Shown here piece by piece: positions 2,360 to 20,818 of a stretch of DNA of 21,698 nucleotides. The translations under genes and the position numbers were made by a program. Below the pieces are notes generated by a model, which saw only the letters and a list, made by a program, of their open reading frames with translations, did not search any database and was not told the DNA's origin. How positions within the stretch are numbered: position 1 is the first letter of the stretch; each line of letters begins with the position of its first letter. This DNA is from a virus. The stretch covers positions 1 to 21,698 of the IMG/VR virus record IMGVR_UViG_3300047457_000412, one strand, 5' to 3'.

Positions 2360-2390
2360 CGTCCTCTGAGTGGACGTAAAACTCTCTGAA

Positions 2391-4480: not shown

Positions 4481-4843
4481 GTGGCTGACTTCATTCAGTC
4501 GCTCTCTGAGGTCATTCCCTCCCATCTTCGCAAGGAGATGGAGAGGGAGCTCCTCAACGGGTGGAGGATGCAGGAAGCCGCCTCTTATACTCAGGCGAAG
4601 CAGATTGCGGCGTTCAATCACTCGAACGCTGCGAGGAGCCTGGAGGGGGTCGGGGAGCTAAAGGCTCAGATCCCCCTCTCTGCTTATCATTACTGGGGCC
4701 AGCGCCTCGGTTATGCGTGCTGGGATGATGAGTCGTTCGTGAATGACTACATCAAGCACAACCCGGAGATCGCCGTGAAGAACCGCGTGAAGCGCACGGT
4801 GGTCAACGGGGCCATTTTCACCGCCGACGGATACGTCGTATGA
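4481..4843 (+). CDS. Hypothetical phage structural-module protein, 120 aa
   Basis: I do not recognise this protein. GTG start at 4481, eight bases after the capsid stop; only a weak GAAG precedes it. The product is predicted mostly helical and soluble. It has an aromatic central motif AYHYWGQRLGYACWDDESFV (residues ~67-86) and a basic segment KNRVKRTVV near the C-terminus. The stop overlaps the ATG of the connector-like gene by four bases (ATGA), suggesting coupled expression. The place between capsid and adaptor would suit a head-completion or assembly factor, but nothing in the sequence proves that. Confidence 0.65.
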   Translation: MADFIQSLSEVIPSHLRKEMERELLNGWRMQEAASYTQAKQIAAFNHSNAARSLEGVGELKAQIPLSAYHYWGQRLGYACWDDESFVNDYIKHNPEIAVKNRVKRTVVNGAIFTADGYVV

Positions 4844-5601
4844 GGACTGTCAACTTCAGCACCGTTCTGTTCGAGGGGCTTCAGCTCGCCGGCCAGGACA
4901 GGCACAACATCACAGACGAGACGTTCGCCCAGTTCAGGGACTTCGCCAATCAGCGCCTGCGGATGGCATGGGAGTCTCAGGACTGGCCTGATATCATCCG
5001 CGTGAGCCAGTTCACCGTCACGGACGTCAACGGGCTTGTGACGGCAGCCATCCCTGCCGACGCCGGGGAGATTTTGAACTGCTATTCGGACGATCCTCTG
5101 AGCACGACCAGGGCTGTTCCGATTTCATACCGCATCTACAACGACGGAAGCACCGTCAAGCTGGTTTTCGGGACTGACCCGTCTGTCGTCTGGGGGGAAT
5201 ACCGCATTAAGAAGCCTGAGCTGTTCGGAGACATTTGGAGCTCGAGCGTGGCTTATTCAGTCGGCGCTCAGGCGTACTTCGACAGCGGTTCGAACACCGG
5301 CACTTCGATGCCCGTTGCCGGAAAGCCTCATTACGGAGACTTCTGGGAGTGCCTTGCGGCTACTACGGCTGGTCAGTCCCCTGCGACTCATCCTTCGTAT
5401 TGGCAGAAGAAGGAGGTTCCGTACATCTTCGGGACGTTCCTTTCCAGGGGAATGTATGCGGACTGGCTGCGCTCTGAGCTCCAGGTTGACGCGGCTCAGG
5501 TCGCTGAGGCCGAGGCTCAGGCCATGCTCGAGGCTGAGGTGGACAAGATTTTCCGCCAACAGAAGCAGTCGAACCGCATCAACATGATCCGCACTTACTG
5601 A
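4840..5601 (+). CDS. Head-to-tail connector/adaptor-like protein with inserted CBM-like segment
   Basis: Probable adaptor that attaches to the portal and carries the tail. The N-terminal ~60 residues form helices (TDETFAQFRDFANQRLRMAW) followed by beta strands. The C-terminal ~60 residues are helical (SRGMYADWLRSELQVDAAQ, then AEAEAQAMLEAEVDKIFRQQ), the helix-rich plan of podovirus gatekeeper/adaptor proteins. Between them, residues ~133-192 form an extra segment with spaced aromatics, W...VAYSVGAQAYFDSG...GDFWECLAAT...P..HPSYW, like a carbohydrate-binding module of the CBM5/12 type. The start ATG overlaps the previous stop. The adaptor call is inferred from order and helix pattern. Confidence 0.6.
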   Translation: MRTVNFSTVLFEGLQLAGQDRHNITDETFAQFRDFANQRLRMAWESQDWPDIIRVSQFTVTDVNGLVTAAIPADAGEILNCYSDDPLSTTRAVPISYRIYNDGSTVKLVFGTDPSVVWGEYRIKKPELFGDIWSSSVAYSVGAQAYFDSGSNTGTSMPVAGKPHYGDFWECLAATTAGQSPATHPSYWQKKEVPYIFGTFLSRGMYADWLRSELQVDAAQVAEAEAQAMLEAEVDKIFRQQKQSNRINMIRTY

Positions 5602-5604
5602 TTT

Positions 5605-5901
5605 ATGTCGTATCCCATCAACAACTTCTTCACCCGGAGCTTCACGCATAGCGACGTGACGGTGGGGACTTCCGCCGCTTCGGCCCTTGCTGCGCTTGCC
5701 CAGCCTGGTCGCCGCATCCACCTTCTCATCCAGAACCAGCACGCGTCCGCCGTGGTCGAGGTCATTCTTAATGGCACCGGCTCCGAAGGCTTCAACTTGG
5801 CCGCTGGCGCTACCTTCAGCATCGAGGGCTACAACGGGGAAGTCCGTCTGAAGTCTGACACGGCTGCCACGCCCGTCCACATCGCCTACGCAGTCGCCTG
5901 A
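5605..5901 (+). CDS. Small beta-rich virion protein, possible decoration or head-fibre protein
   Basis: 98 residues, mostly predicted beta strands, with a segment RRIHLLIQNQHASAVVEVIL and a Gly/Ala-rich turn (FNLAAGATFSIEGYNGEVRL). This 'I/L-Q-N ... PG/AG-x-x-x-x-I' plan is often seen in small phage capsid decoration or fibre-base proteins. It has no signal peptide or membrane segment. ATG 5605 follows the connector stop by three bases (TGATTTATG) with no Shine-Dalgarno sequence; the same junction occurs before the 715-aa gene. The stop overlaps the next ATG (TGATG). The role is inferred from fold style and position. Confidence 0.55.
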   Translation: MSYPINNFFTRSFTHSDVTVGTSAASALAALAQPGRRIHLLIQNQHASAVVEVILNGTGSEGFNLAAGATFSIEGYNGEVRLKSDTAATPVHIAYAVA

Positions 5902-6728
5902 TGGCGATCAGGATCCAGTTCGCTGGAGACAAGAGCATCGGTGTCGGTTCAAGGCCGCCCGGTGCTTTCAGCATTTTCAAGCCTCCTGGTGCTGCGTTCC
6001 CCCCTGCCGGGACATACTACGACACGCAGTACGGGGTCGAGTATCCTATCGCAGAGGGTGGGTTGTATTTCACCAGTCCTATAGGGGCAAATCCTCTAAT
6101 TCCTAATCAGACTTGTGATGTTGACAGGGAACACGATGGGTCTGGAGGCATCGTGTATGATTGGACTACGGCTACAAATGTGGCGTACAAGGTTATGGGG
6201 ACTTACTGGGGAACAGATACCACAGCACAAACCCCTTCAACCCCTGTTGAAGTTCCTTCTGGAAGCGGGTTCTATTATGACTCTGGATACGACAATCCTA
6301 CCTATGAACACGATGGTCTTGGTGGATGGCAGAATGGTCTGCCAGTCTTTGCGGGTTATTACGCTAATGGAATATTCATTGTCCAAGAGTTGAGTTATCA
6401 GACTGAAGTTCCTTCTGGCTCTGGTCAATACTACGACAATGGACTTGTTAGTAACTATGTTTGGAATGGAAGCGGTGGATATACGACAGCAACTGGTGGG
6501 GCTTATTACAATCCGGGTATTATCATAACACTAATCAACGACTCAACGGAAGTTCCTTCTGGCTCTGGTCAATACTACACTAATGGAATGGTGCATCAGT
6601 ATACTTGGGATGGTGGTGGAGGATACGTATACGCTTTTAATGGAAGTTATTACTCCTCTGGCACATTCATCTATAATGACGGAACTTACGACTACTACTG
6701 GGACGGCTCTGGCGGCTACTACACCTAA
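5901..6728 (+). CDS. Tyr/Gly-rich repeat protein, possible fibre or surface protein
   Basis: 275 residues. The first ~50 residues are GC-rich like the neighbours and probably anchor the protein. The remainder is AT-rich and built from repeats of about 48-52 residues. Each opens with EVPSGSG-x-YY (starting at residues 117, 169 and 217) and contains YxW-[DN]-G-x-GGY and a further YY. Earlier, more diverged copies appear around residues 35-110. Aromatic, Gly-rich repeats of this kind suggest an exposed, beta-structured fibre or receptor-facing protein. I do not recognise a named family. The start overlaps the previous stop by one base. The composition change from about position 6060 points to acquisition or repeat expansion. 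Confidence 0.55.
   Translation: MAIRIQFAGDKSIGVGSRPPGAFSIFKPPGAAFPPAGTYYDTQYGVEYPIAEGGLYFTSPIGANPLIPNQTCDVDREHDGSGGIVYDWTTATNVAYKVMGTYWGTDTTAQTPSTPVEVPSGSGFYYDSGYDNPTYEHDGLGGWQNGLPVFAGYYANGIFIVQELSYQTEVPSGSGQYYDNGLVSNYVWNGSGGYTTATGGAYYNPGIIITLINDSTEVPSGSGQYYTNGMVHQYTWDGGGGYVYAFNGSYYSSGTFIYNDGTYDYYWDGSGGYYT
6249..6692 (+). repeat. In-frame coding tandem repeats (~144-156 nt units)
   Basis: Unit starts are at 6249, 6405 and 6549. A 30-base stretch beginning GAAGTTCCTTCTGG is identical at 6405-6434 and 6549-6578; the first 14 bases also occur at 6249-6262. Spacings are 156 and 144 nt, both multiples of three, so unit gain or loss keeps the frame. Confidence 0.85.
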
Positions 6729-6738
6729 TCTTTAATCT

Positions 6739-6864
6739 ATGCTCATCACTATCATCATCTCGCTCACCCTTGGCTTCGCTGGCGGCTTCTACGCCGGGAT
6801 CAAGAACGCCAACTCGTCCAAGGTCGCCAAGGCCAAGGACATTGTTGACCTTATCAACAAGTAA
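6739..6864 (+). CDS. 41-aa single-pass membrane microprotein
   Basis: ATG 6739 to TAA 6862-6864 encodes 41 residues. An N-terminal hydrophobic helix (LITIIISLTLGFAGGFYAG, residues ~2-20) has a small-residue GxxGGxxxG-like pattern that favours helix packing. A Lys-rich, predicted helical tail follows (residues 22-41). The stop overlaps the nozzle gene ATG by one base (TAATG), the same junction used elsewhere in the operon, and the gap between the flanking genes is otherwise unexplained, so I take it as real. It probably sits in the inner membrane or packs in the virion. Function unknown. Confidence 0.6.
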   Translation: MLITIIISLTLGFAGGFYAGIKNANSSKVAKAKDIVDLINK

Positions 6865-8477
6865 TGCCCGTCCGTGAGTACGCAGTCGATGGCGACTTGG
6901 GGTTCATCGGACTGAACTCCAGGGACAATCCTGTCGTACTCAGCAAGGGCTTCGTCACGAAGTCCCAGAACATGCGGATGGATCGCGGGGTTGCGACCGT
7001 CCGAAAGGGCGCCGAGAAGCTCACGTCCGGCGCGCTGGTCAGCGAGACGATTTACGCAGCCTGTACCTACACGACGTCCACAGGGACTGAGTTGCTGGTT
7101 CTTGCCTGCGGTGACGGCCTGTACACATACAACCCTGACACCGAGGCCATCTCAACAAAGAAAACCTACCCTGCCGGGGAGACTATCACTTCCTCTGACG
7201 ATGTTGACATGTATCAGGCGCAGGGAGTCGGCTATGTGTACATCTGCCGTGGGTTCAGCAAGAGCACGCTCAGGTGGGACGGAAGCTCGGCTACTGTCGC
7301 TGGCCCTGGGGTTAGCGCACATCACAACTACCCTAACAGCCGTCACGCAATCTACTACGGGAACCGGCACATCGTCCAGACCGACAGCAATACCTTCCAG
7401 GTCAGCCATTACCTCGAGGACAACAACTGGTCGTCCTTGGACATGTTCAGCATCAACGACGGCGGAAACGACCGTCTCGTCTGTCTGACGCCCTGGACTC
7501 TTAACGAGTTCGTGATCTTCATGCGGAACAGCGTGTTCTACGCTTCCGTAGGGGTTGGCGCCGCGTCCGTAGGTGACCCTGCTCAGGATACTGACTCCTA
7601 CATCAAGTCCCTGGCTACCGACATAGGCTGCATCGCCCGCAGGTCTGTCGTTCAGGCCGGCGGGGGGATCATCTTCCTGTCTGACAACGGGGTGTACGTC
7701 CTGAACCCCTCCGGGGCGTCCTCTGGGCAGGGAAATACCCCGGAGGGCATGCGCCTGCTTACCATCGGTGAGCCGCTGTCTGCGCCCATTTCTGACGTAA
7801 TCGCGCGCATCAACTACAACTACGTCGATAAGGCCGTGGCGGTGTACTGGGAGAACAGGTACTACCTTGCCGTCCCCTTGGACAGCGCTACCACGAACAA
7901 CACGGTCTTGGTGTATAACTTTGTGAACAAGGCTTGGGAGTCTGTTGATACATACCCTAACGGCTTCGATATCAACAACTTCTGCATCGCCAAGGTCGGA
8001 AATCGCAGGCGCATATTCGGCATCGACCCGCAACAGGGCATCTACCTTCTGGAGAACCTCGAATGGGACGAATACGGCGCGTCAACCGGCCAGCCCACCC
8101 TGCCCTTCTATCTTCCTTCTTCCAGCGTCCTTGGGACGAGCTCTTACACCCAGCACGCCATATCAGGTGAGCTTATCAGCAGGGCTTACGCTTTCGACAC
8201 GAACCGCGAGAAACGCTATTCCAGCGTCCAGGCTGACGCCTCCTTCCCAGCTGGATCGTCAGTCACGGTGTCCTTCATAACGGTCAATCCTGACTACACG
8301 ACCGTCCTAAAGACGTATAACTCCCCTTCTGATGAGGACTTTCTGTTGCGTTTCCCCGTAAGGAAAACAGGATTTTACGGACAGCTGAAGTTCCAGACGA
8401 ACAACCTCAGACCGTCCATCCGTTCCATCACGACCGAGGCCATAATCCCCGGCATCAACACTCAAACCACCAAATAA
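6864..8477 (+). CDS. Tail nozzle/hub-like beta-propeller protein
   Basis: 537 residues, nearly all predicted beta strand. The N-terminus carries GFIGLNSRDNPVVLSKGFVT and NMRMDRGVATVRKG, a pair of segments I associate with large podovirus tail proteins that lie after the adaptor. The body has repeated blade-like strands (LLVLACGDGLYTYN, GVGYVYICRGF, GGIIFLSDNGVYVLN, VLVYNFVNKAWESV, GIYLLENLEW), which fits a beta-propeller such as the nozzle (T7 gp12-like) or a P22 gp10-like plug. No catalytic motif is seen. It starts on the stop of the microprotein gene and ends directly before the fibre-like gene (TAAATG). The fold inference is moderately safe; the exact tail role is inferred from order. Confidence 0.62.
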   Translation: MPVREYAVDGDLGFIGLNSRDNPVVLSKGFVTKSQNMRMDRGVATVRKGAEKLTSGALVSETIYAACTYTTSTGTELLVLACGDGLYTYNPDTEAISTKKTYPAGETITSSDDVDMYQAQGVGYVYICRGFSKSTLRWDGSSATVAGPGVSAHHNYPNSRHAIYYGNRHIVQTDSNTFQVSHYLEDNNWSSLDMFSINDGGNDRLVCLTPWTLNEFVIFMRNSVFYASVGVGAASVGDPAQDTDSYIKSLATDIGCIARRSVVQAGGGIIFLSDNGVYVLNPSGASSGQGNTPEGMRLLTIGEPLSAPISDVIARINYNYVDKAVAVYWENRYYLAVPLDSATTNNTVLVYNFVNKAWESVDTYPNGFDINNFCIAKVGNRRRIFGIDPQQGIYLLENLEWDEYGASTGQPTLPFYLPSSSVLGTSSYTQHAISGELISRAYAFDTNREKRYSSVQADASFPAGSSVTVSFITVNPDYTTVLKTYNSPSDEDFLLRFPVRKTGFYGQLKFQTNNLRPSIRSITTEAIIPGINTQTTK

Positions 8478-9419
8478 ATGGCTCAAATCCAGAAAGGCCA
8501 CACCTACGCCAACGGCGATCAGGTCACGGCGTCCAACCTGAACAATCTGGCTGACTCAGCCGTTCTTCTGCCTGGGGCCATCACCGACCAGACCGCGCTC
8601 ACGGCGAACACGGTTGCCACCGGGGATACCGTCCTGCTGCATGATGCTTCCGCGTCTGCTCTCAAGAAGGCCAGCGCGTCAGACCTGCTGAACAGCGGGC
8701 TTGCCATCACGACCTCGGCTCTGGCGAGCCCTACGGCTGCTGACCTCGTCATTACTCCTTCCGCCGGTCAGAAGGTCGATGTTGCCGGGACTCTTGAGGC
8801 TGACGACGTCAATGTCACGGACGACCTCACGGTCACGGGAGACACGACACTTTCCGGCCCTGTTATCACCAGCAGCACGATCACGGCGAACGGAGCCAGC
8901 ACCTTCGTCGGGAACGTGATCGTTGACAACGGGCTGACCAGCAACGGGACTGCCAACTTCACGGGCGTCCTTCAGGTCAACGGAAGCACGGCGTATGTGC
9001 TGTATGAGGTCAGCGAGGAGTCCATCAACAAGTTCACGGCTACGAACAACAGCCAGCTTTATTCGGCGTTCACCTCGGCTTCCTACACCAAGCCTTCCGG
9101 GGAAATCTGGGTGGTTGAGTTCAATATCGACATGCTCGGCAACTCAGGGCGCATCCATTACCGCATGACCAACAGCGCGGATACTACGGTGTATCAGATG
9201 AAGAACGGATACATCAACTCGTCCGCCGATCCTCGGTCATACTTCGACCGCTTCTACTTGAACACTTCAAACACCCATTCCGGCACGTTCGTCCTGCGTG
9301 TTTTTAACATCCAGGCTGGGGTTATCATCAATCCCGAAGCCGCCGACTGGAACGGTCAGTCCTTCCAGAACTACGGCACCGTCGGGAAGTTCCGCATCTA
9401 CAAGTACAAGACTGCCTGA
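8478..9419 (+). CDS. Tail fibre-like protein
   Basis: 313 residues. The N-terminal ~80 residues resemble a virion-attachment region (GHTYANGDQVTASNLNNLAD is a common phage-fibre opening). Residues ~85-165 are short repeated strands of the type V-x-V-x-G-x-T-x-L (LEADDVNVTDDLTVTGDTTL, STFVGNVIVDNGLTSNGTAN), which suggests a trimeric beta-helix shaft. The C-terminal ~145 residues are a separate beta-rich domain, probably the receptor-facing tip. No enzymatic motif or chaperone-type autocleavage motif was recognised. ATG 8478 directly follows the nozzle stop, without a Shine-Dalgarno sequence. Confidence 0.65.
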   Translation: MAQIQKGHTYANGDQVTASNLNNLADSAVLLPGAITDQTALTANTVATGDTVLLHDASASALKKASASDLLNSGLAITTSALASPTAADLVITPSAGQKVDVAGTLEADDVNVTDDLTVTGDTTLSGPVITSSTITANGASTFVGNVIVDNGLTSNGTANFTGVLQVNGSTAYVLYEVSEESINKFTATNNSQLYSAFTSASYTKPSGEIWVVEFNIDMLGNSGRIHYRMTNSADTTVYQMKNGYINSSADPRSYFDRFYLNTSNTHSGTFVLRVFNIQAGVIINPEAADWNGQSFQNYGTVGKFRIYKYKTA

Positions 9420-9847
9420 TGCTTCTCTCTGAACTCAAGGCGTTCATCAAGACGAACCGCAAGAAGGGTCGTCGGGAAGCGTTCGGCCTTGCTGTCCAGA
9501 GCGACGACACCTACCTCGCCTGGGCGTTCGCCTTCGACTATCTTTTCGTGGTCAAGGAGGACTTCAAGGTGACTGGATGCGGGGTGGCTTATCCGCTTAA
9601 CAAGCCGTATTCAGGCGACGTCAAGGCGCTCTTTGCGTTCGGCAAACCAGTCCCGCGCGACTCAGAGGGTTCATGCGACATTTGCATAATGGACTGGATA
9701 GCTGTCACGGGGAACGCCCGCCGTGAACTCGTACGGCTTTTCAAGGTTCGCTACAAGAACTGGGACAAGCAGCGCAAGTGGGGTCTGCACGACGACGTCC
9801 CGCGTGAGTTTTCCAACAAGTACCTCAACCATCTCGAAACACTCTAA
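9419..9847 (+). CDS. Unknown 142-aa protein in T7 gene-13 position
   Basis: A small alpha/beta protein with a central aromatic segment (YLAWAFAFDYLFVVKEDF), strands around CDICIMDWIAV, and a basic C-terminal helix (RRELVRLFKVRYKNWDKQRK). The length (142 aa) and place just before the ejection proteins parallel T7 gp13 (138 aa). The layout could fit a reduced acetyltransferase-like (GNAT) fold, but I cannot identify an acetyl-CoA-binding loop. It starts on the fibre stop (TGATG) and its stop overlaps the next start (TAATG). Function unproven. Confidence 0.5.
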   Translation: MLLSELKAFIKTNRKKGRREAFGLAVQSDDTYLAWAFAFDYLFVVKEDFKVTGCGVAYPLNKPYSGDVKALFAFGKPVPRDSEGSCDICIMDWIAVTGNARRELVRLFKVRYKNWDKQRKWGLHDDVPREFSNKYLNHLETL

Positions 9848-10689
9848 TGGGCTCAAAAGCAAAGGTTCCAGCACCTAACCCTGAAGCCGACTACCAGCAG
9901 TATCTGGCTGAGGCCAGGAACGCCCTGCGCGCCCAGTATCAGGTTCTTCCTGAGATGGCTGAGATGCAGACTCGGCTCGCTCCGCAGCTCGCTCAGGCTC
10001 AGACCGCCGCCGCCGAGGCAGGTGCTCGCGGTTTCCTCGGTCTTGCCGGGGCGCTCTACCAACCAGGGATGGATATGCAGCAGCGGGTCGCCCAGGGTCA
10101 ACTCGGCCTTATGGCTGGGCTTGCTCCCCAGGCCACCCAAGCGGTCATGGCTGGGATGGATGAGACGACCAGAGGCCTGTATCAGACCTTCGGGCAGCAG
10201 GCTCTTGCTGATCTCCAGCAGGGGACTGCCCTTAGCGCTCAGGAGACTACGCTCGCCCAGCAGGCTGCGCGGGCTGCGGCTGAACGACGCGGGGTGAACT
10301 TCAGCCGTCAGGGGGCAGACCTTGAGATTTTGAACACCTACCAGCTCGGCCAGCAGAGGCAGGCTCAGCGCCGTGCGGTCGCTCAGCAGGCGTTCGCCTT
10401 GGGTCAGGGCGTTCAGACCCTTGGGCTTACGGGCTTCCTCAGCCCGTCTCTGGCGATGGCTCAGCCTTACAGTCCGACGGGTCTTGCTGGCTACGGCATG
10501 CAGTCAGTACCGAACCTCGCTGAGTCGTTCCTTACGCCTGAGTCGCAGTACATGGCTAACATCCGAGCCAACCGCATCCAGATGGAAACCTCTATCCAGG
10601 CCGCCAACGCCCAGCGTTCCGGGGCTATCTTCGGAGGTATTGCTTCTGGTATTGGAGCCGCAGCCGGTGGCTATCTTAGCAGACCTTGA
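9847..10689 (+). CDS. Internal virion (DNA ejection) protein, T7 gp14-like position
   Basis: 280 residues, Ala/Gln-rich and almost entirely helical, with repeated AQ-rich amphipathic helices (residues ~20-190). A C-terminal segment MANIRANRIQMETSIQAANA is followed by a Gly/Ala hydrophobic helix (IFGGIASGIGAAAGGYL), a plan typical of podovirus core proteins that insert into host membranes. In T7, gp14 is ejected to the outer membrane and starts the ejection channel. The order 142-280-715-2403 aa parallels T7 gp13-gp14-gp15-gp16. No signal peptide or enzyme motif is seen. Assigned by composition, C-terminal pattern and gene order. Confidence 0.62.
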   Translation: MGSKAKVPAPNPEADYQQYLAEARNALRAQYQVLPEMAEMQTRLAPQLAQAQTAAAEAGARGFLGLAGALYQPGMDMQQRVAQGQLGLMAGLAPQATQAVMAGMDETTRGLYQTFGQQALADLQQGTALSAQETTLAQQAARAAAERRGVNFSRQGADLEILNTYQLGQQRQAQRRAVAQQAFALGQGVQTLGLTGFLSPSLAMAQPYSPTGLAGYGMQSVPNLAESFLTPESQYMANIRANRIQMETSIQAANAQRSGAIFGGIASGIGAAAGGYLSRP

Positions 10690-10692
10690 TTT

Positions 10693-12840
10693 ATGGCATC
10701 ACCCTTCCAGAAATACACCAGCGAGCAGGTTCAGCAACTTGCCCCTGGGTTCGTCGAGGCATACGGTCGTGCCGGGGCTTCTATCGGAGCCGGCATCCAG
10801 AACCTCGTCGGAGGAGTCGTCAAGGGCATCGAGGCGGGTCAGGACAGGCGCACCAAGGAAGCCGCTGTCAAGGGTCAGCTTTCGCCGCAGATTGCCCGCG
10901 AGGTTCAGAGCGTTGAGCGCTTCCTTCAGGGCGGTGAGTTCGTCAAGGACGACAAGGGGAACATCACGATTGCCGCAGGAAAAGAGGGCATGTTCGACCC
11001 GGTCAAGGCTCAGCGTGCCATCGACGTGTACAACCAGACGGCTGGCGGAACCAAGGACGTCAAGGGGGATGACCTCGTTCGTCTTGCGTCCACCTATCAG
11101 GGATACGACCAGATCATTCAGGCTGACGCAGCCAACGCCAAGGCTGCTGTTGAAGCCAGAAAGGCTGCGATTGACCTGAATAACTCAGAAATCGAAGGAA
11201 AGGTAAAGACCTTCACGCTGGTCAAGGGTGCTGCTGATGCGTTGCTCGTTCAGGCTGCTCAGGCTCAGACTGAGGCCGACAGCCTTGCGCTCGACCCGAA
11301 TATTCCACAGGACGTCATAGCCAGCCGCTATGCCATCGCAAAGGCCTTCAAGGATCAGGCCATTCAGATTACCAAAGATGGCTTGTCTAAAGCCGGCGTT
11401 GACCTTTCATTGTATGAACCGAAACCGCCCGAACCTACCCCTGTCACGCCGGCGTCCATCGCGCTCGGGTTCGGCGTCCCGACGGTCGGAACTGTCGCAG
11501 TCCCGACGACGGGTGAAGTCCCGACGGTGCCGTCAGTCTCAGCAGCCCCTTTTGCGCCTGCTACTGCCCCTGCTGCCAAGCCTGTTAAGCCTGCTGAGGC
11601 GCCTGCTGCCGGGGTCGCTCCTGCGCCTGGGGTGACGCCTGCCCCTGCGCCTGCTCCTACCCCTGCCCCTGCGCCTGCCCCTGCTGCCGTCCAGCCTACT
11701 CCTACCCGAAACGTACAGAACCTTCTGACGGGCAAGATGGTAGCGCCTACTGCCCCTGCCACTACACCTGCCGTACGGCCTGCCGCCGCAGCCAAGCCTG
11801 CCCCTGCTGTTGGTATTAGGGCTACCGAGGCGAACGAAATCATCGAACGCCAGAAGGTCGTAAGGCAGAACTACCTCAGAGATCAGGCAGTCCTTTCTGC
11901 CAGGTTGAGCAGCCGCGTCATTTCACCCGAAGCCAGGGAAAGCACGAGAAAGCAGATTGAGTCCATCAACAACAAGGTGGTCGAAATCGACAAACTCATT
12001 ACCAGCCAGACGGCTATCGTCGCTGAGCAAGAGAAGGCTGCTGCTGCTGGTGAGACGGCTAAGGCCGCATCTACGACGGAACAGCGCAATCTTGTGAAGG
12101 ACTTTGAGACAGGCCTCCCAATCCTCGGTGGAGGGTGGATGTACGAAGGACGCGCTCGAGCGATGGAGGACAACGCAACCGGCGTTCTCATGAAGCTTGA
12201 GGAAGCGGCTCTCACCCCCAACTACGGTCGTTTCCAGGGAAGCCTTGATGAAGTCAAGGAAACCGTATCTTCGCTTAACACCTTCATGGGTACTGCCCTT
12301 GACCTTGACGCTGCGATCAAGAAGCGTGTTCAGACCGGCGACCGCTGGCTTGACCGAGTCTCTCTTACCACCAACGACTTCACGACGCACGCCGCCGGAA
12401 ACATCGCTGAGAAGATCCTTCTGGCGTCCATGCGTAAGGCCATTGTCTCAGGCGGAAACTTCTCCGACCAGGACAGAAAGTTCGTCTTGGAGGCCATCGC
12501 GTCAATCAACACGCTTGACCCTACAAAGAGGGCTGAGTACTTCCTGAAACTGAACGAAGTAATGGCACAGATGGTCTATCGCATGTACTCTGACAAGCTT
12601 GAGGTCGCAGGCTTCGTCAACCGTCCTGACCTCGTAGGCAAGGGAGATGCCTCTCCGTCATCCAAGCAGCGCTCGAATTTCGAGCAACGCTTCATGGTCG
12701 GAAAGGCCAGAGAGGAACTTGATGCCCTAATCAGGGCAAAGCCAGGAAAGGACTCAGACAGGGCATCCCTGTCCGGCGCCATCGAGGCTTTCAATCAGGC
12801 CGCAATCGAAGCGCGAGCCAAGGCCAACTCAGCCCGCTGA
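10693..12840 (+). CDS. Internal virion (DNA ejection) protein, T7 gp15-like position
   Basis: 715 residues, close to the 747 of T7 gp15, and in the same order. It starts with a Gly/Ala helical region (YGRAGASIGAGIQNLVGGVV), followed by long Gln/Ala/Lys-rich helices to about residue 240. A disordered Pro/Ala/Thr linker spans residues ~242-373, then a helical C-terminal half (about 376-715) that contains charged coiled-coil-like stretches. No enzyme motif is seen. T7 gp15 forms the periplasmic tunnel with gp16; the same role is likely here but inferred. ATG 10693 follows the previous stop by three bases (TGATTTATG), without a Shine-Dalgarno sequence. Confidence 0.6.
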   Translation: MASPFQKYTSEQVQQLAPGFVEAYGRAGASIGAGIQNLVGGVVKGIEAGQDRRTKEAAVKGQLSPQIAREVQSVERFLQGGEFVKDDKGNITIAAGKEGMFDPVKAQRAIDVYNQTAGGTKDVKGDDLVRLASTYQGYDQIIQADAANAKAAVEARKAAIDLNNSEIEGKVKTFTLVKGAADALLVQAAQAQTEADSLALDPNIPQDVIASRYAIAKAFKDQAIQITKDGLSKAGVDLSLYEPKPPEPTPVTPASIALGFGVPTVGTVAVPTTGEVPTVPSVSAAPFAPATAPAAKPVKPAEAPAAGVAPAPGVTPAPAPAPTPAPAPAPAAVQPTPTRNVQNLLTGKMVAPTAPATTPAVRPAAAAKPAPAVGIRATEANEIIERQKVVRQNYLRDQAVLSARLSSRVISPEARESTRKQIESINNKVVEIDKLITSQTAIVAEQEKAAAAGETAKAASTTEQRNLVKDFETGLPILGGGWMYEGRARAMEDNATGVLMKLEEAALTPNYGRFQGSLDEVKETVSSLNTFMGTALDLDAAIKKRVQTGDRWLDRVSLTTNDFTTHAAGNIAEKILLASMRKAIVSGGNFSDQDRKFVLEAIASINTLDPTKRAEYFLKLNEVMAQMVYRMYSDKLEVAGFVNRPDLVGKGDASPSSKQRSNFEQRFMVGKAREELDALIRAKPGKDSDRASLSGAIEAFNQAAIEARAKANSAR
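11416..11811 (+). repeat. Low-complexity Pro/Ala coding tract
   Basis: Dense CCT/GCC/GCT/CCC runs encode a Pro/Ala/Thr/Val-rich linker of about 130 residues inside the 715-aa protein, with its core around 11630-11700 (alternating Ala-Pro). It probably forms an extended, flexible spacer that lets the protein thread through the portal and tail. Confidence 0.75.
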
Positions 12841-12842
12841 AG

Positions 12843-15800
12843 ATGGAACCTGACGCGCCGGAAGCCCCGAAGCCGTATTCCGTACCATTCTACACCTACG
12901 ACCAGAACGGTCAGGTGAACGGTGGGTACTCCATGCAGGATCCCAAGTTCCAGGCCGGGACTGCTGAGTCCGCCCTGTTCTTGGACTCACCTGCCGCCCA
13001 GTCCCTGCCTAATGTCAGGGATTTCACCAAGCGAGCTGAGTTCCTGTTCAAAGTTAAACTTGGTCAAGAAACCAATGTCATTGGCATGGCACGCGCTCCC
13101 TTCGCGTCGTTGGAGCCTATCGCCGCGTTCAAGGACGTAGATGATGCGCGTCGTTCCATGACTCTGGCTGAGATTGCTACTGAGCACGACTCGGAATACG
13201 TCTTTACCACGATCAGCGAGAAGCTCAGGGACATTTCCAGAAGCAACGAAGGGAACGCTGATTTCCGCCTTCATAACCTTTCGGACGAAGATGTGATAGC
13301 TATCTCCGCCGGCATGGGGGTCGAAAGTCATGTCATTGACCAGATGCGTGCGAGCAAGCAGAACCCATACAAGGAGTTCGGCATCGACCTAATGACTAAG
13401 GTTAGGGCTAAACTGAGCAGGGCTGACTCTGAATACGAACTCGGTGAAACCGTGGCTAACGACCTCATGGGGGAACTGTTCCTTGAGGACAACCCTGAAT
13501 GGAAGGCCAGGAAGTTCCTGGCGTATCAGTACTACACGGCATCTACGGCTCCCAATAACGTCAATCAGTTCACGCATGCCATAGGCACGCTTTTCAGCGC
13601 CTTCGCTGAGACTGCTATCAATGTTGGTACGGGCACTAAGGAGGCCTTGGCCGGCACGGATGAGCAGATGCTTTCTGACAAGTACCGTCAGAACCCTGAC
13701 CTCAAGAACAAGGCTCTTGCCATCCTGCGCCGTGCCGAGGACGTAGCCTTGACGCAGTACAATCAAATGAAGTCTTTGAGCCGCGAGGACATGTACACGG
13801 CGGCTTTGGCGTTCGCCCAGGTTCCTGATAATCAGCAGCTCCTGCTGGACATTGAGACGCTGAAGCAGGACGGCGCTTTCACGGACGCGAGCCGGTGGAG
13901 CCGTCTTTACAGCGTGTTCGACGGGGCGATCCGTGGGACTCAGGAGTTCTATCGAATGGGAGTGGGATCTACCGACCCGAACTCAATCACATATAACATC
14001 GAGAGTGCATATGATGATCCTGATATTCAAGGGCCAATGTCAGCCCCCTACGCAGTCATTAGGGGCATAAAGAACGCTTTCGCAGGGACTGAGCGTTATC
14101 GCAGGATGAGCACGCAGGAGCTACTCAGGTCTGCTAAGGTGCTTGAGGATAACTACAATCAGGCTCACGAGAACTCAGACATGGGTGGCATCGCCAGGAT
14201 GTACAAGGCCGCTGGAATGACTGAAGCGTCCGTCGCGGCTGACAGGCTGACCAGTCTTGGAGTATCAGAGCAGGCTTCATACGCCATCGACATTCCTACT
14301 CTGGCCGGAGGGGTCGCTGGAATGTTCAGTAAGGGCGCGAAGGCAGCGAAGATAGCAGGCTTCGTTGACGACGCCATGAAGTCGAAAGCCGTGACGCTCA
14401 TTGGGGACGTAGTCGCAGCAAGGGGAGCAGTAGCCGCCGCTGACGATGCCATGTCTATTGCGGTCAAGAACCTAAAGGATGGCTTTGCCGCGAGGGGGAT
14501 ACAGGTCACGGAGAACGAGGCGATTGCCTTGGCTCTGTCTCAGAACCTCGCGTCTCCTGAAGCCCGTGCAGCGCTTGCGGCCATGAGCCCTGACGTAAAC
14601 ACGGTGAAGTCTGCCGTCGGTGGAGTTCTGGCTAAGAACAAGGACGTCAGGAACGCCACCAAGCAGTTGCTGGCTGATGCCAAGGAAGCCGCAGCCAAGG
14701 CTCCCAAGCCTACCGTCGCCAAGGGCGCTCCCGTGGCCGGTGCTGTCGCCAAGGGTGCCGGAAAGACGGCTGAGTTCACGGGGTCTGTGCTTGAGACGCT
14801 CGGTGATTTGATACTTGGGACTTCGCCTGAAAGGGCAGGAATGGTCACTCGCAGGGGTGCTCAGATGATCCGAAGGGGGGCAACAGGAGCCTCAGTAGTC
14901 GGCGGTTCTATGGTCGCTTACGACGTCTTTACTGGTGAGATTTCTGACATTCCTGGCGCTGCTGCTGAGTTCCTTAAAGGAAGCGTTCAGGCTGCTGCAT
15001 TTGCCGCCGGTGCTAAGTTTGCCGGGACTGTCCTCAAGACCAACGGAAAGCTCCTGTCGAACGTCGCCATTGAAATCGCACAGGGCAACCGCAAGGGCGC
15101 GTCAATCTTCCTTGAGTCCGCAGACAGGCTTGAGGCGAGCGTCGAAGCCTTGCGTAAAGCAGGGGCGAGTCAGGAGAAGATAAACAAGACTTTGGCTGAC
15201 GCGAAACTTCTCAGGAACGCCCATAAGGCTGGGTGGGAGAAGCCTCTCACGGAGATGGCCGTAATCTCCTATCAGGGAGCCAAGGCCGCCACGACCGGGG
15301 CTGTCCTCGCATACCTGAACAACACCCAGGCAGCGTCCGCAGGGGCAGGCTTCGGGTTCGGTGGCGCCATGATTGCAGGAGCTGCCGCCCGCCTCGGCCA
15401 GATGCTCCCGTCCGGAGTTGAGGCAAACCGAGAGATGGCCGTGCTTGCGAACGGTCTGTACGTCCTGAACAGGCGCAGCCCGAAGGAACGCGCGCTGTTC
15501 TATGAGATGATGGAACGGAACGGAATAATCAATCCCGACGGCACGATGGGCAACCGAGACGCAGCCATCCGCATGCTTGAGGGGCTCACTCTGCTCGAAG
15601 GCGGACTAATGGGGTCTTTCGAGATCATCCGCGAGGGCGAGCTCATGGGCAGGACTATCGGCATGCAGCATGCCGGCATCAACGTAGATGCCATCAAGAC
15701 TCTGGCTGGTCAGATGTACCCGGACGATGCGGTCATGGCTGCGAACTACGCTGAGGCTCTCGTCCAGCGTGCGAACTTCCAGAACAACCAGTACGCCAAG

Positions 15801-18800
15801 GTCGCCGCCCTGAACGTCCAGATAGGCAAGAACTCCAAGCACCTTGAGAAACTGAAGGTGGAACTTGACGCACAGACCAAGGCTCTCGCCCTGGCTGAGC
15901 AGAACAACAACGCGAAGCGTCAGTCTGAGCTTCGCTCGCAGATTTCGCAGACCGAGGCGAACATCAAGGTTCTGGAGACTGAGAACCAGAAGTTCACGGA
16001 TGACGTCAATCTTGAGAAAACCCGTCTTGTTGACCGTGAAGCGGTGATCCGTGAGGCCGATGCCCGTAAGCTCGAAGGCAAGGAAAGGGAAACCTTCATC
16101 GAGACTGAGGTTCTCAATCGCGCAGAGCAAATCGACCCTATCCGTCCTGGCGAGGTCAGGAACGGTCAGGTAGGAACCAGCATCAGGCAGGTCGCTGACG
16201 GCGTGTACATCAACGACGGAGAGGGCGGCAAGGTGTACATCAATGCCAATAAGGCCAACTCGCTGACCTTGGTTCACGAAGCCTTCGAGGGCATCCTCAA
16301 GGACGACGCCATGAAGGCGGTAATGCCTGAGCTGGTGGACTTCCTCTACGGTCAGCCCGGTTCTGGAAAGAGGGTCATTTCTGACGCCAACCGCCAGAGG
16401 TTCTTCGACCTGTATGCGTCAGACCTGGCGCCTGAACTTCGGACTAAGTACCTCGAACAGCTCAAGAACGCCGAGAAGCTCTATAACGACACGGGAGACT
16501 TCTCTGCCCTGCTGCCTTACGTTCAGGAGGCTTCGGCCTGGTGGCTGTCCGTCGTGCATGACTCCAGACCCGTAGGCTATGCCCCGGGCATGACCACCCC
16601 CAGGGGGCAGGAAGCGCCTCGTCCGCGCATCTTCGACGGCATCTTCGGCAAGGACGGACGCTCCAAGACGAGGGCCATGTACGACCTTCTGATGGGCGAG
16701 CGTTCCACGGCTGAAATCGCCGTTGACAGGCTTGCCGCCGGCGCCGACGCAGAATGGGCCGCCTTCATCGACCCTGACTTCGGATGGTTCGGTCAGCGCA
16801 CCCGGTCGTTCATTCGGTCGCATCTTGAGTCAAACGGGTTCTCGATGCTCGAAGGATCAGACGGCACGGTAAGAGGGTTCTTCCGTGAGGACGGCGTAGT
16901 CCAGCGCGGCTATCTCCTCGACGACATGTACGAGGCCATCGCTCGGAACCTCGGAGGAACCAGCGGCGTCCGCAGGGCGAACTTCGACCCTCTTTCAGAC
17001 CCCCGCGTTTCGGAAGCCGTGAAGGTCGAATGGGCTCAGCAGAACGGCCTTGACCACCTGCTGACAGACCCTGCCGCCGGCCCTGTCAGGGTTATGACCC
17101 CGGATGAGATGGCAGGGGTTTCGAGGCAGATCAACGAAGGCATCCGCGACGCCATCAGCACGGTTGAACCCGGCAAGTCAGGCCTTCAGATCATCGACAA
17201 CGGGAACGGCCAGACGGTAATCACGGGCAAGCCAACCCAGGCTGACATTGATGCCGTGAACGGAAACCAGTCCATCCCCCCTGGCGTACGGCAGAACATC
17301 GTGACCGCCATGGAGGGGGCGGCCAACGGCACGGCTAACAGCGTCCTGCGTGGGCGCTATGTGAACGTCAGGACTAAGCAGAAGGGCGTCGGGACTGAGG
17401 AGCGCCTGCGCGTCCCGCGTGACACGGGCGGAGCCGTCAGCGAGGAGAAGGAGTTCATTCCTCTGAGCATCGTGCTCGGCATGTCCAGGGACGTACCGGG
17501 CGGAGGTCGCCTTGCTGCCCCGATCCCGACGGCGCGCATCGTCGGTCTGGACATTAAGGCGGTCAAGGGGAACCTGCTGACCATGCGTAGCCGTGGCCTG
17601 TTCGATCAGGAGGGCAACATCGTCGTAGGCTCAGACGGCAAGGCTTTCACGCCTGAGCGTTTCAGGGAGTTGTTCCCGACCGACGCGCAGTACTGGAACG
17701 CCGTGAACGTGTACACGACTCACCTGATGGCGGCTGGCAAGATTGACCCTACGAACAACCGCCCCGTGATGCCGGCGAACATGGAGCCTACCGCCGCCGT
17801 GCTCGCTCGGATGGCTGGCAACCCGTCCGACCTCAAGCTTGGGGAGGCCATGCGCGACGCCATCCGTTTCGGTCTTGGCATCGACTCCCGCAAGGACTTG
17901 GTGCTCATCCATCCCAGCCCATACAAGAAGGTGCTGCGCGACATCAACCAGACCATCACGGACTTCCGCATCGACGGCCTCGGCAAGCTCATGCCTACCG
18001 GCGAGCAGTTCGCCGTGGACTCGAACGTGATCGCTTGGTCACAGGCGAACATGTCTCCGTCCACCTGGACTAAGCTGAGCAAAGAAGGACTGGCCGGGCT
18101 TGCCCCTGCCGGGGAGGGTTGGTCTGTGTCGTCGGCGGTGTATCACCCGAACACCCAGCACATCATCGTTCAGGACAGCCGAAAGACGGAAGGCGGGAAG
18201 CCTGAAGTCCGTTTCCGCATCTATGACAAGTCCGGCTCCCTGATTGAGAACCAGGCTCGGAACATGCAGGAAGCCCGCGAGGCCGTAAGGAACAAGATGG
18301 CTACGGACGAGGCGAACTCAGCCATCGCAGACGCCTTGGCAGAGGCCATAAAGGAGGAAGATAGAATAAAAATGCCAGTACTTAAAGAGGCAGCAAATAA
18401 AGCAGGATACACGGTTGGGCCTGTTTTTCATGGAACTCCAACAGGTGGGTTTTATGTGTTTGATGCAGGAAGAACTGGTACTGGAGGAGGTGTATCAAGA
18501 GGAGGCTTCTCATTCACTACGAATAAAGAAGCGGCGACCAGTTATTCGATGAGTGTAGGAGCTTCGCCTGCGTCAGAGATGGTTGTTTCTGCTAACAAGA
18601 TTTTCAGAACTTCTGATCCTAAAAAATTCATCTTCGATACTCCGGCTAATGAAATAGAACTAAAATTGGAAAATCTTGATTATTCAGGCAAGGGAGATGT
18701 TGCCGATGCGCAAGCTGAAGTAATACGAGATTATGCTGACCTATATGAAGCTGCTGGAATGAAAGAACAGGCAGATCAACTCAGAACAGTAGCATCAATG

Positions 18801-20054
18801 GCAGCATCTAAACCTACTCCAGAGGTCAAGAGTGTGTTTCTGAGGATTGGTGACAATCCTTTGATTGTAAAAACTACGAGGAAGAACATGGCTAATGACC
18901 TATGGGGAGTTCGTGCAGAGAAAGGAAGGAATGTCATTGTTGAACTTGAGGACGGAGAAAGGATTTTCTACATTAACGACCCATCAGACATTAAGAGTGC
19001 TGAGCCGTTTGTATTTGACGACAATGGCGTTGAAGTACCTCTTGAAAGAAGGTTTGGCCCTGGAGCAGATATTAGAGGTGATTTGTCTGGCCTAAAAGAA
19101 AGAACAAAAAAAGGTAAAGCCTTCATGGAGGTGCAGGCTTATTACGCCGCCCGTTCCAAGCGCATCGCTGAAATAGCCCGTCGCATCGCCAAGGAGAAGG
19201 AGATAAAGTTCATCAGGGAGAACAACGCCGACGTCGAAGCCCAGCGCAAGTGGGAGGAGGAGGCCGCGCGCCGTGCCGAGGGTGAGCGCAAGGCTGAAGT
19301 CCGCAGGCTTGAGACTGAACGCAAGCAGGCCGAGAAGGACGCCTATGACGCGGCTAAGCGCCAGCGAGACATTGACAACAAGGCCGGCAAGGCTTTCCGT
19401 CTGCCGTCAGAGCAGCTCAGCCTCGCTGAACGCTATTACCTCGGAGACGACGTCAAGCTCCGCAAGGCGCTGGAAGCCATCGACAAGACCGGGCCTGGGC
19501 TCGTTAATCTTCAGAATATGCTCCAGACTCCGATGGAAGAACTCGGCGTCGGGATTGAGAAACAGACGAGCATCCAGGGGGTCGGCCTTGCTACCCTGCC
19601 CGTGTACAAGAAGGCTCTGATGTTCACCAAGCGTCCTCTGTCCAAGGTCAATCAGGACATAGCCGCAGCGAGGGCTGGTCAGATGGGAACCGTTTCGGAG
19701 GCCATGAGCATGCGTCCTCAGAGTGCCGAAGCGCTCCAGGCGTACGACTACATCATGTCAAACGCAGCAGGCGGGGTCATTGTCAGCGAACTCAGGAAGA
19801 TGCAGGGCAAGCCTCCGATACGAGTATTCTCGGTGTATTCTTCCGGCATGAAGGTCAAGATCATGGAGACTGAGGACTTCCGTGAAGCCCTTCAGGAGAC
19901 GCTAATCAGCGCGTACCGTAATGACGCCAAGGCGATTGCTGAGGCTACTAAACTCCCTGCCATCACGGTTGAGGGGATGGCTGAGACTGTCAGGATGAAG
20001 TCTATGCGCGGCGAGCCGCTTGCTCCGCAGGTAATCCAGAGGTACACCCGATGA
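12843..20054 (+). CDS. Giant polyvalent internal virion protein, T7 gp16-like position
   Basis: 2403 residues, far longer than T7 gp16 (1318), and last in the ejection-protein series. Order of visible parts: a helical N-terminal region (1-470) without a recognisable lytic transglycosylase motif; hydrophobic Gly/Ala stretches at about 480-500, 680-735 and 805-855 that could enter membranes; a coiled coil at about 992-1085; a zincin-like segment (1120-1235) with H1145-E1146-x-x-E1149 and a later E1229; mixed alpha/beta regions to 1835; an ADP-ribosyltransferase-like domain (about 1838-2095); a highly charged helix (2104-2180); and a C-terminal region to 2403. Such domain mixes are known from 'polyvalent' proteins that phages and plasmids deliver into new hosts. 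ATG 12843 lies two bases after the previous stop. Overall role inferred, domains partly recognised. Confidence 0.7.
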   Translation: MEPDAPEAPKPYSVPFYTYDQNGQVNGGYSMQDPKFQAGTAESALFLDSPAAQSLPNVRDFTKRAEFLFKVKLGQETNVIGMARAPFASLEPIAAFKDVDDARRSMTLAEIATEHDSEYVFTTISEKLRDISRSNEGNADFRLHNLSDEDVIAISAGMGVESHVIDQMRASKQNPYKEFGIDLMTKVRAKLSRADSEYELGETVANDLMGELFLEDNPEWKARKFLAYQYYTASTAPNNVNQFTHAIGTLFSAFAETAINVGTGTKEALAGTDEQMLSDKYRQNPDLKNKALAILRRAEDVALTQYNQMKSLSREDMYTAALAFAQVPDNQQLLLDIETLKQDGAFTDASRWSRLYSVFDGAIRGTQEFYRMGVGSTDPNSITYNIESAYDDPDIQGPMSAPYAVIRGIKNAFAGTERYRRMSTQELLRSAKVLEDNYNQAHENSDMGGIARMYKAAGMTEASVAADRLTSLGVSEQASYAIDIPTLAGGVAGMFSKGAKAAKIAGFVDDAMKSKAVTLIGDVVAARGAVAAADDAMSIAVKNLKDGFAARGIQVTENEAIALALSQNLASPEARAALAAMSPDVNTVKSAVGGVLAKNKDVRNATKQLLADAKEAAAKAPKPTVAKGAPVAGAVAKGAGKTAEFTGSVLETLGDLILGTSPERAGMVTRRGAQMIRRGATGASVVGGSMVAYDVFTGEISDIPGAAAEFLKGSVQAAAFAAGAKFAGTVLKTNGKLLSNVAIEIAQGNRKGASIFLESADRLEASVEALRKAGASQEKINKTLADAKLLRNAHKAGWEKPLTEMAVISYQGAKAATTGAVLAYLNNTQAASAGAGFGFGGAMIAGAAARLGQMLPSGVEANREMAVLANGLYVLNRRSPKERALFYEMMERNGIINPDGTMGNRDAAIRMLEGLTLLEGGLMGSFEIIREGELMGRTIGMQHAGINVDAIKTLAGQMYPDDAVMAANYAEALVQRANFQNNQYAKVAALNVQIGKNSKHLEKLKVELDAQTKALALAEQNNNAKRQSELRSQISQTEANIKVLETENQKFTDDVNLEKTRLVDREAVIREADARKLEGKERETFIETEVLNRAEQIDPIRPGEVRNGQVGTSIRQVADGVYINDGEGGKVYINANKANSLTLVHEAFEGILKDDAMKAVMPELVDFLYGQPGSGKRVISDANRQRFFDLYASDLAPELRTKYLEQLKNAEKLYNDTGDFSALLPYVQEASAWWLSVVHDSRPVGYAPGMTTPRGQEAPRPRIFDGIFGKDGRSKTRAMYDLLMGERSTAEIAVDRLAAGADAEWAAFIDPDFGWFGQRTRSFIRSHLESNGFSMLEGSDGTVRGFFREDGVVQRGYLLDDMYEAIARNLGGTSGVRRANFDPLSDPRVSEAVKVEWAQQNGLDHLLTDPAAGPVRVMTPDEMAGVSRQINEGIRDAISTVEPGKSGLQIIDNGNGQTVITGKPTQADIDAVNGNQSIPPGVRQNIVTAMEGAANGTANSVLRGRYVNVRTKQKGVGTEERLRVPRDTGGAVSEEKEFIPLSIVLGMSRDVPGGGRLAAPIPTARIVGLDIKAVKGNLLTMRSRGLFDQEGNIVVGSDGKAFTPERFRELFPTDAQYWNAVNVYTTHLMAAGKIDPTNNRPVMPANMEPTAAVLARMAGNPSDLKLGEAMRDAIRFGLGIDSRKDLVLIHPSPYKKVLRDINQTITDFRIDGLGKLMPTGEQFAVDSNVIAWSQANMSPSTWTKLSKEGLAGLAPAGEGWSVSSAVYHPNTQHIIVQDSRKTEGGKPEVRFRIYDKSGSLIENQARNMQEAREAVRNKMATDEANSAIADALAEAIKEEDRIKMPVLKEAANKAGYTVGPVFHGTPTGGFYVFDAGRTGTGGGVSRGGFSFTTNKEAATSYSMSVGASPASEMVVSANKIFRTSDPKKFIFDTPANEIELKLENLDYSGKGDVADAQAEVIRDYADLYEAAGMKEQADQLRTVASMAASKPTPEVKSVFLRIGDNPLIVKTTRKNMANDLWGVRAEKGRNVIVELEDGERIFYINDPSDIKSAEPFVFDDNGVEVPLERRFGPGADIRGDLSGLKERTKKGKAFMEVQAYYAARSKRIAEIARRIAKEKEIKFIRENNADVEAQRKWEEEAARRAEGERKAEVRRLETERKQAEKDAYDAAKRQRDIDNKAGKAFRLPSEQLSLAERYYLGDDVKLRKALEAIDKTGPGLVNLQNMLQTPMEELGVGIEKQTSIQGVGLATLPVYKKALMFTKRPLSKVNQDIAAARAGQMGTVSEAMSMRPQSAEALQAYDYIMSNAAGGVIVSELRKMQGKPPIRVFSVYSSGMKVKIMETEDFREALQETLISAYRNDAKAIAEATKLPAITVEGMAETVRMKSMRGEPLAPQVIQRYTR
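18354..19125 (+). other. AT-rich island encoding an ADP-ribosyltransferase-like (ART-PolyVal-like) domain
   Basis: Within the giant gene, base composition changes abruptly to A/T-rich and codon choice changes too (AGA Arg, ATA, AAA, TTT), returning to the GC-rich style near 19130. The encoded ~258 residues carry the marks of the polyvalent-protein ART domain: VFHGTP (H1863), a GGFSFTTNKEAATSYS block (to Y1901), a VFLRIGDNPLIV strand, E2039 in DGERIFYI, and DPSDIKSAEPF (2046 onward) followed by an RFGPG tail. In the family these residues bind NAD+ and transfer ADP-ribose to a target; here the catalytic residues are candidates by position only. Confidence 0.68.
20038..20042 (+). promoter_or_regulatory. 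Shine-Dalgarno-like site (AGAGG)
   Basis: AGAGG lies eight bases before ATG 20051, inside the end of the giant gene. It supports the lipoprotein start and contrasts with the structural genes, which mostly lack such a site. Confidence 0.5.
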
Positions 20055-20818
20055 GGATTGCCCTTATTTCAGCATTGGCAGTCCTTACGGGCTGTTCCAC
20101 GGTCAAGGACTGGTTCAAGGCCGAGGAGGAGCCGAAGAAGGTGGTTGTCACCCAGTCGGCAGACCCTGGCGCCATGTCCAAGCTGGGGGACAAGATTGAC
20201 AAGTCCGATAGCCGGGTGGCCGCTGCTTTGACCGCTGCCATCGAGAACAAGGACAAGCCGGACGTCGTCCAGGCTGAAGGCAGCCTCGCCCTCGCTTACC
20301 TCCCGAAGCCAACGGACGGAGATCTGGCCTTCGCCCGTGCAAGGGCCGCCAAGGCCGACCCCAAGGACTACCTTGAGCAGTCGAAGTTCGCCAAGGAGTT
20401 CCTCGCCAGTCTGGACAAGGAATGGAAGGATGCTCAGGACAAGGCCAAGAAGAACGCCGACGACCTGACTGCCGCCATGACTAAGATTAACGACCTGAAC
20501 GTCGAGCTGGCTAAGGTTCGCAAGGATGCGGAGATTAATCTACGCAAGGCCGAGGCCGAGGCGTCCAAGAACGTATGGACTCTGGCAGGGGTGGCTCTGG
20601 TCGCCCTGGGCGCCATCCTGACCGCGTTCATGGGGGTAAGGGTCGGCGGCGTCCTGCTGGTCTGCGGGGCGTTCTGCGGGTCTATGCCGTTCATCTACGG
20701 AAGCCAGTACTTCAACTGGGTAGCCGGGGGAACCCTCGGGGTGGCTGCGGCTCTCGGGCTTTGGCGCCTGTACGACTACATAAAGGACAAGAACGATGAG
20801 CGCGGCGAGCAACCCTGA
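20051..20818 (+). CDS. Lipoprotein with coiled coil and three C-terminal membrane segments, candidate spanin-type lysis protein
   Basis: 255 residues. An N-terminal signal sequence ends in a lipobox (LTG-C15) with Ser at +2, so an outer-membrane lipoprotein is likely. Then comes a mostly helical, Ala/Lys-rich periplasmic part, with a coiled coil at about 108-172. The C-terminus has three hydrophobic segments at about 175-193, 198-216 and 223-240, ending in a charged tail. A lipid anchor at one end and an inner-membrane anchor at the other is the plan of unimolecular spanins such as T1 gp11, but those have one C-terminal TM, not three. It overlaps the giant gene by four bases (ATGA) and the holin gene by 23. 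Other membrane roles are possible. Confidence 0.55.
   Translation: MRIALISALAVLTGCSTVKDWFKAEEEPKKVVVTQSADPGAMSKLGDKIDKSDSRVAAALTAAIENKDKPDVVQAEGSLALAYLPKPTDGDLAFARARAAKADPKDYLEQSKFAKEFLASLDKEWKDAQDKAKKNADDLTAAMTKINDLNVELAKVRKDAEINLRKAEAEASKNVWTLAGVALVALGAILTAFMGVRVGGVLLVCGAFCGSMPFIYGSQYFNWVAGGTLGVAAALGLWRLYDYIKDKNDERGEQP
20783..20787 (+). promoter_or_regulatory. Shine-Dalgarno site (AAGGA) for the holin gene
   Basis: AAGGA sits eight bases before ATG 20796, a good spacing. It fixes that start within the end of the lipoprotein gene. Confidence 0.6.

What the first reader, a model, noticed from the sequence alone, without database searches (positions are those of the whole stretch)
18354..19125. 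ADP-ribosyltransferase-like domain on an AT-rich island spliced in frame
Base composition and codon choice change sharply at both ends of ~258 codons, while the reading frame stays intact. The island matches the ART domain closely (HGT, FSFTTNKEAATSYS, DPSDIKS). This suggests recent horizontal acquisition of a toxin-like module into a virion gene.
Basis: partly seen in the sequence, partly recalled or inferred. Interest (0 to 1): 0.75.

Follow-up and report, generated by a model that had tools for sequence, protein, structure and literature searches.

The report
ART cargo domain in giant phage protein
A tailed phage's giant, probably injected, protein carries a foreign-looking ADP-ribosyltransferase domain spliced in frame at a spot where related phages carry nothing or other domains, as if the protein's tail end were a holder for interchangeable cargo.

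Summary
The island alone scores above Pfam's cut-off for ART-PolyVal (PF18760). It aligns end to end with ART modules of other giant phage proteins (up to about 39% identity), and its predicted structure matches only ART-fold enzymes in the top 50 re-aligned PDB chains.

Sixteen homologous giant proteins were recovered, and none carries the ART. The closest full homologue (L110, 47%/45% identical either side) changes from similar to unrelated exactly at the island's edges and holds a different 145-aa segment there. Seven homologues read straight through; others hold other domains. In near-identical pairs a second, nearby tail site gains or swaps a roughly 110-160-aa domain.

Best reading: an ART-PolyVal effector cassette acquired in frame into a cargo region of a giant, probably ejected, virion protein. 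This is a new member of the known polyvalent-protein kind.

Not shown: packaging, injection, enzyme activity, date of acquisition, donor. The conserved GYDG aspartate is Asn here, so activity is uncertain.

The parts
12843..20054 (+). giant protein gene (2403 aa), scaffold that carries the island; between two likely internal-virion-protein genes and lysis-type genes
   Evidence: homologues in 16 other phage contigs, intact ones 2193-2942 aa (one is split in two ORFs)
18354..19124 (+). ART-PolyVal module (aa 1838-2094) on the AT-rich island
   Evidence: segmentation; PF18760; alignment with 41 phage ART modules; model and structural neighbours
18429..18437 (+). HGT motif (His1863), His invariant in all ART modules aligned
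   Evidence: the HG[TSG] motif was also used to pick the set
18543..18545 (+). Tyr1901 of the A-x-x-Y motif, conserved in most relatives (34 of 50)
18924..18938 (+). GRNVI, position of the family's GYDG motif; conserved Asp is Asn2030 here (two relatives, L170 and L191, also have GKN)
18975..19001 (+). NDPSDIKSA, counterpart of FDP(S/T)QIKSA; followed by the family's tail (EPxxxDDxG...PLxxRF...DIR)
18303..18353 (+). left flank, last block shared with homologue L110 (53% over 17 aa) before divergence
19125..20051 (+). right flank, coiled-coil and C-terminal block, 45% identical to L110
16275..16289 (+). HEAFE, degenerate zincin-like motif of the scaffold (SExxH in another clade), with invariant Glu at aa 1229; function unproven
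   Evidence: model of the region low confidence

Best explanation
The island is a complete ART-PolyVal (Tox-ART-HYD2 type) effector module that was acquired, in frame, from a more AT-rich source. It sits in a variable cargo region just before the C-terminal coiled coil of a giant podovirus protein. The most likely working, in steps: (1) shown: the module is an ART-family domain standing where the relatives have nothing or something else between the same two conserved flanks; (2) inferred from gene order and size: the giant protein is an internal virion (ejection) protein packaged in the head and delivered with the DNA; (3) inferred from the family (Iyer 2017, phage T4 Alt as model): inside the host the ART uses NAD+ to ADP-ribosylate host macromolecules early in infection; (4) inferred: the slot lets phages of this group change the effector without changing the delivery scaffold. 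Step 3 is the weakest, because the family's conserved aspartate is Asn in this copy; I put step 3 alone at about 0.5.
For: Composition and codon break at both ends with open frame. PF18760 above curated cut-off. Module aligns from GYTVGPVFHGT to the PLxxRF..DIR tail with ARTs of other giant phage proteins, phmmer E down to 1e-10 in the small set searched. AF2 model (pLDDT 77) whose 50 best re-aligned PDB rows are all ART folds, Z up to 7.8; 40%-identical match over the whole module in BFVD, E 5e-21. None of 16 giant homologues has the ART: 7 read through and the rest hold other segments. L110: 47% identical before, 45% after, different cargo between. Near-identical pairs L112/L122 (112-residue in-frame insertion, 87-90% identical flanks) and L117/L118 (different cargo, 90% identical flanks) show gain and swap in the same tail region. 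Class precedent: PMC5512222, PMC9503650.
Against: No sibling with the island was found, so a contig chimera cannot be excluded by a second copy. The homologues outside L110 are only 24-28% identical, so exact slot edges there depend on alignment. Packaging is not shown and the giant protein matches no PHROG. GYDG aspartate and FDPSQ glutamine are replaced, so catalysis is doubtful. VIA Z stays below 8 and Foldseek against PDB alone gave no significant match.
Confidence: 0.75

Rival explanations
1. The ART domain is old in this gene and the low GC reflects local constraint or relaxed codon selection in a non-essential domain, not recent import; relatives lost or replaced it.
For: Other cargo segments are also somewhat AT-richer than their scaffolds (L110 0.63 against 0.73, L122 0.52 against 0.66), so low GC could be a property of the tail region.
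Against: The shift here is far larger (0.29 against 0.72) with edges sharp to a few codons; none of the homologues shares the domain; flanking linker and coiled coil have normal composition.
Confidence: 0.15
2. The domain is a divergent, catalytically dead ART kept for binding NAD+ or a host protein, or as a structural filler. (This concerns activity and can be true together with the acquisition described above.)
For: Conserved GYDG Asp is Asn2030, FDPSQ is NDPSD, and the aromatic of GFYF is Ser.
Against: The His and most hydrophobic positions are kept; two other phage ARTs (L170, L191) have the same Asp to Asn change, and the GFYF position varies in the family; no frame damage.
Confidence: 0.3
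3. The contig is a metagenomic chimera in which an unrelated ART-bearing fragment was joined into the scaffold.
For: The window is a single metagenomic fragment; no second copy exists in the collections searched.
Against: Both junctions keep the reading frame; module edges fall at the site where relatives also hold other domains; the right flank continues into genes with homologues in related contigs.
Confidence: 0.05

Closest known systems
ART-PolyVal (PF18760; Tox-ART-HYD2 clade) in phage polyvalent proteins, e.g. Roseovarius Plymouth podovirus 1 vRNAP (CBX87992)
   Same: same domain family by curated profile; domain inside a giant phage protein; conserved His
   Different: conserved GYDG Asp replaced by Asn; long helical insert between motifs; carrier protein is a different scaffold with no recognised RNA polymerase
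uncultured Caudovirales phage protein A0A6J5LR51 (BFVD)
   Same: 40% identity over the whole module in the structural search
   Different: its surrounding protein was not compared
MuF polymorphic toxins of temperate phages (PMC5576092)
   Same: virion-associated protein with exchangeable effector domain (known from abstracts seen)
   Different: no MuF domain found; cargo is internal, followed by a conserved C-terminal block; no immunity gene was searched for
T7-like / P22-like ejection proteins with mosaic domains (PMC8954989)
   Same: gene position after tail genes, large size, domain swapping described as thematic
   Different: no match to any PHROG family at E 0.01; cargo here is an ART-type effector

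Membership tests
ART-PolyVal (PF18760) | score above the curated profile cut-off | tested here: met
   33.7 bits against 31.2 for the island alone; in the full 2403-aa protein the score is 23.9, below cut-off
ART-PolyVal (PF18760) | catalytic His in strand 1 (HG[TS]) | tested here: met
   His1863; strand 21-28 in the model
ART-PolyVal (PF18760) | conserved Tyr (HYD2 active site) | tested here: inconclusive
   Tyr1901 of A-x-x-Y present, but the aromatic of GFYF is Ser; which Tyr is catalytic was not resolved
ART-PolyVal (PF18760) | conserved acidic residue (Asp of GYDG, taken here as the D of HYD) | tested here: not met
   Asn2030 in the alignments that place GRN at GYDG; L170 and L191 also have Asn. 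Membership of the sequence family rests on the profile; membership among canonical HYD2 enzymes is not met
ART-PolyVal (PF18760) | ART fold | tested here: met
   all 50 listed VIA-align rows are ART enzymes, Z 6.3-7.8, below the level of 8 that the tool advises for certainty; Foldseek not significant in PDB, significant with ART-PolyVal proteins in BFVD
Polyvalent protein | several domains of disparate activity in one giant protein of a mobile element | tested here: inconclusive
   one enzymatic-type domain certain; zincin-like motif degenerate and its model low confidence; relatives hold GNAT-like domains at sub-threshold score
Polyvalent protein | packaged and delivered with the DNA | not testable with these tools
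   only gene order supports it
MuF polymorphic toxin | MuF domain | tested here: not met
   no MuF family among Pfam or PHROG matches of the protein

The most novel reading that the evidence does not exclude
The C-terminal part of this uncharacterised giant protein family is a dedicated cargo-exchange region: a conserved delivery scaffold whose internal slot is emptied, filled or refilled with unrelated, often AT-richer effector domains (ART here; GNAT-like and unknown domains in relatives), an internal counterpart of polymorphic-toxin tip swapping in a podovirus group.
Probability: 0.5. Interest if true: 0.6.

Novelty: new member of a known kind. Interest (0 to 1): 0.45.

Why it matters
ART domains in giant phage proteins are known, and their repeated accretion has been argued from architecture. 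Here the event can be read directly: sharp compositional edges, a 47%-identical homologue with different cargo between the same flanks, empty sites, and near-identical pairs in which a tail domain is gained or swapped. That makes the question of how phages re-arm an injected protein testable, and the slot gives a way to find new effectors by looking at what lies between two conserved flanks in metagenomic phages.

Tried and rejected
tblastn of the giant protein or the island in isolate phages and of the island in plasmids found nothing at 1e-5; a relaxed search gave only chance-level hits. Direct scans of viral contigs with the giant protein or the island found no relatives; going through the major capsid protein did. 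Core alignment against bacterial genome contigs: none, so no host or prophage was identified. Flanking direct repeats at the island's edges: none of 8 bases or more, so no recombination footprint. Siblings through the right flank: only L110. Zincin fold of the scaffold: model too weak, no PDB match; left as a lead. L110 cargo: no Pfam match and no other copies. The PF18760 score passes the cut-off for the island alone (33.7) but not for the full-length protein (23.9). FDP(S/T)QIKSA and HG are invariant in my comparison set by construction, since those motifs were used to fetch and filter it. The first alignment put Asp2019 at the GYDG column; the closer set and alignment A2 place Asn2030 there.

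Full report
Observation. The window is a 21,698-base virus record with a podovirus-like structural module: portal (3-2030, phrog_1216), scaffold-like protein (2370-3425), major capsid protein (3447-4472, phrog_1328), tail-type proteins (4840-9419), two likely internal-virion-protein genes (9847-12840), the giant ORF 12843-20054, a lipoprotein-like gene and a holin-like gene. In the giant ORF third-position GC drops from about 0.72 to 0.29 between 18357 and 19118. The change is far beyond block-shuffled controls and sharp to a few codons, and the reading frame runs through.

What the island is. By itself it scores above the curated cut-off of PF18760, ART-PolyVal. A motif scan of viral contigs gave 80 loci with FDP(S/T)QIKSA, mostly in long proteins, many over 1000 aa. 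The island aligns with these modules from KAGYTVGPVFHGT to the tail EPxxxDDxG...PLxxRF...DIR, so the island is one complete module and its edges are module edges. It has a long helical insert between the second and third motifs. An AF2 model made with 41 of these modules reached pLDDT 77. Re-alignment to PDB chains gave only ART-fold enzymes in the 50 listed rows: cholix, exotoxin A, PARP1, tankyrase, PARP15 (Z 6.3 to 7.8). BFVD gave an uncultured Caudovirales protein at 40% identity over the module and several proteins named ART-PolyVal-like. The Foldseek PDB search alone was not significant.

Is it intact as an enzyme? The His is kept. The family described by Iyer et al. has His, Tyr and Asp (PMC5512222). 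The conserved Asp of GYDG, present in nearly all modules, is Asn2030 here; L170 and L191 also have Asn. FDPSQ is NDPSD, and the aromatic of GFYF is Ser. Activity is therefore an open question.

Do relatives lack it? The capsid protein led to 80 related contigs. The giant protein's homologues were then found in 16 distinct records that reach the site, by whole-record search and by a core alignment. PF18760 matched only the window among 48 records; many of those are fragments without the gene, so the informative number is the 16. In L110, the closest, identity is 47% before and 45% after the island; between the same flanks it has an unrelated 145-aa segment of nearly scaffold-like composition. 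In L104, L107, L108, L115, L124, L125 and L131 the left block runs directly into the coiled coil. In L102, L103, L112, L113, L117, L118 and L122 a shared helical segment of about 200 aa lies there. L105 has two other segments. Outside L110 the homologues are 24-28% identical, so their slot edges are approximate.

Gain and swap caught in near-identical pairs. L112 and L122 are 87-88% identical before and 90% after a point in the tail where L122 alone has about 112 more residues in frame. L117 and L118 are 90% identical on both sides of the corresponding point and hold different segments there (21% identity). The L117 segment has a sub-threshold GNAT match (E 0.004). The L118/L122 segment looks GNAT-like by motif only. 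These cargos are AT-richer than their own scaffolds (L117 0.34 against 0.52; L118 0.33 against 0.41; L122 0.52 against 0.66). This second site is near, but not identical to, the ART site.

How it most likely works. Polyvalent proteins are giant multi-domain proteins thought to enter the host with the DNA; ARTs are their commonest protein-modifying domain, GNATs are typical partners of one kind, and T4 Alt is the worked model (PMC5512222; PMC9503650). Ejection proteins of podoviruses are known to be mosaic (PMC8954989; PMC10386132). The gene's place between tail and lysis genes fits that role but is not proof. I therefore read it as an effector cassette carried by a delivery scaffold. Shown: domain identity, in-frame insertion relative to homologues, foreign composition. 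Inferred: packaging, injection, ADP-ribosylation of host targets, donor of lower GC.

Novelty. The domain, the protein class and domain accretion are all known. New are this scaffold family (no Pfam match above cut-off outside the island and no PHROG match) and the clear empty, filled and swapped states of its tail. I rate it a new member of a known kind.

Noticed in passing
window 5901-6728: Second composition outlier: a gene with GC3 0.45 made of repeats of the type TEVPSGSGQYYDNG; 13 loci hold relatives, the best four 37-61% identical.
   Followed up: partly
window 18352-18374: AGGAGG followed 14 bases later by an in-frame ATG (18372) exactly at the island's left edge; could allow internal translation of the ART alone, or be a relic of a free-standing gene. 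No other such site in the gene has an in-frame start.
   Followed up: partly
window 16275-16289 and aa 1229; alignment A3: Scaffold motif HExxE in the window's clade and SExxH in another, with invariant downstream Glu, like a zincin in which each clade lost a different His.
   Followed up: partly
window 9847-10689 and 20051-20818 versus G012 (L102, L114): Genes near both sides of the giant gene are 80% and 72% identical to this phage while the giant protein itself is only about 24%, so the giant gene may itself have been exchanged as a block.
   Followed up: no
L108:977-8099 (G017): The giant gene is split into two overlapping ORFs in this relative (1123 and 1312 aa): frameshift, real split or sequencing error.
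   Followed up: no
L110:9440-9874: Unrelated 145-aa cargo at the ART site (YRIVSANEVRSIFTEGMMI...), no Pfam match and no other copy found in viral contigs.
   Followed up: partly
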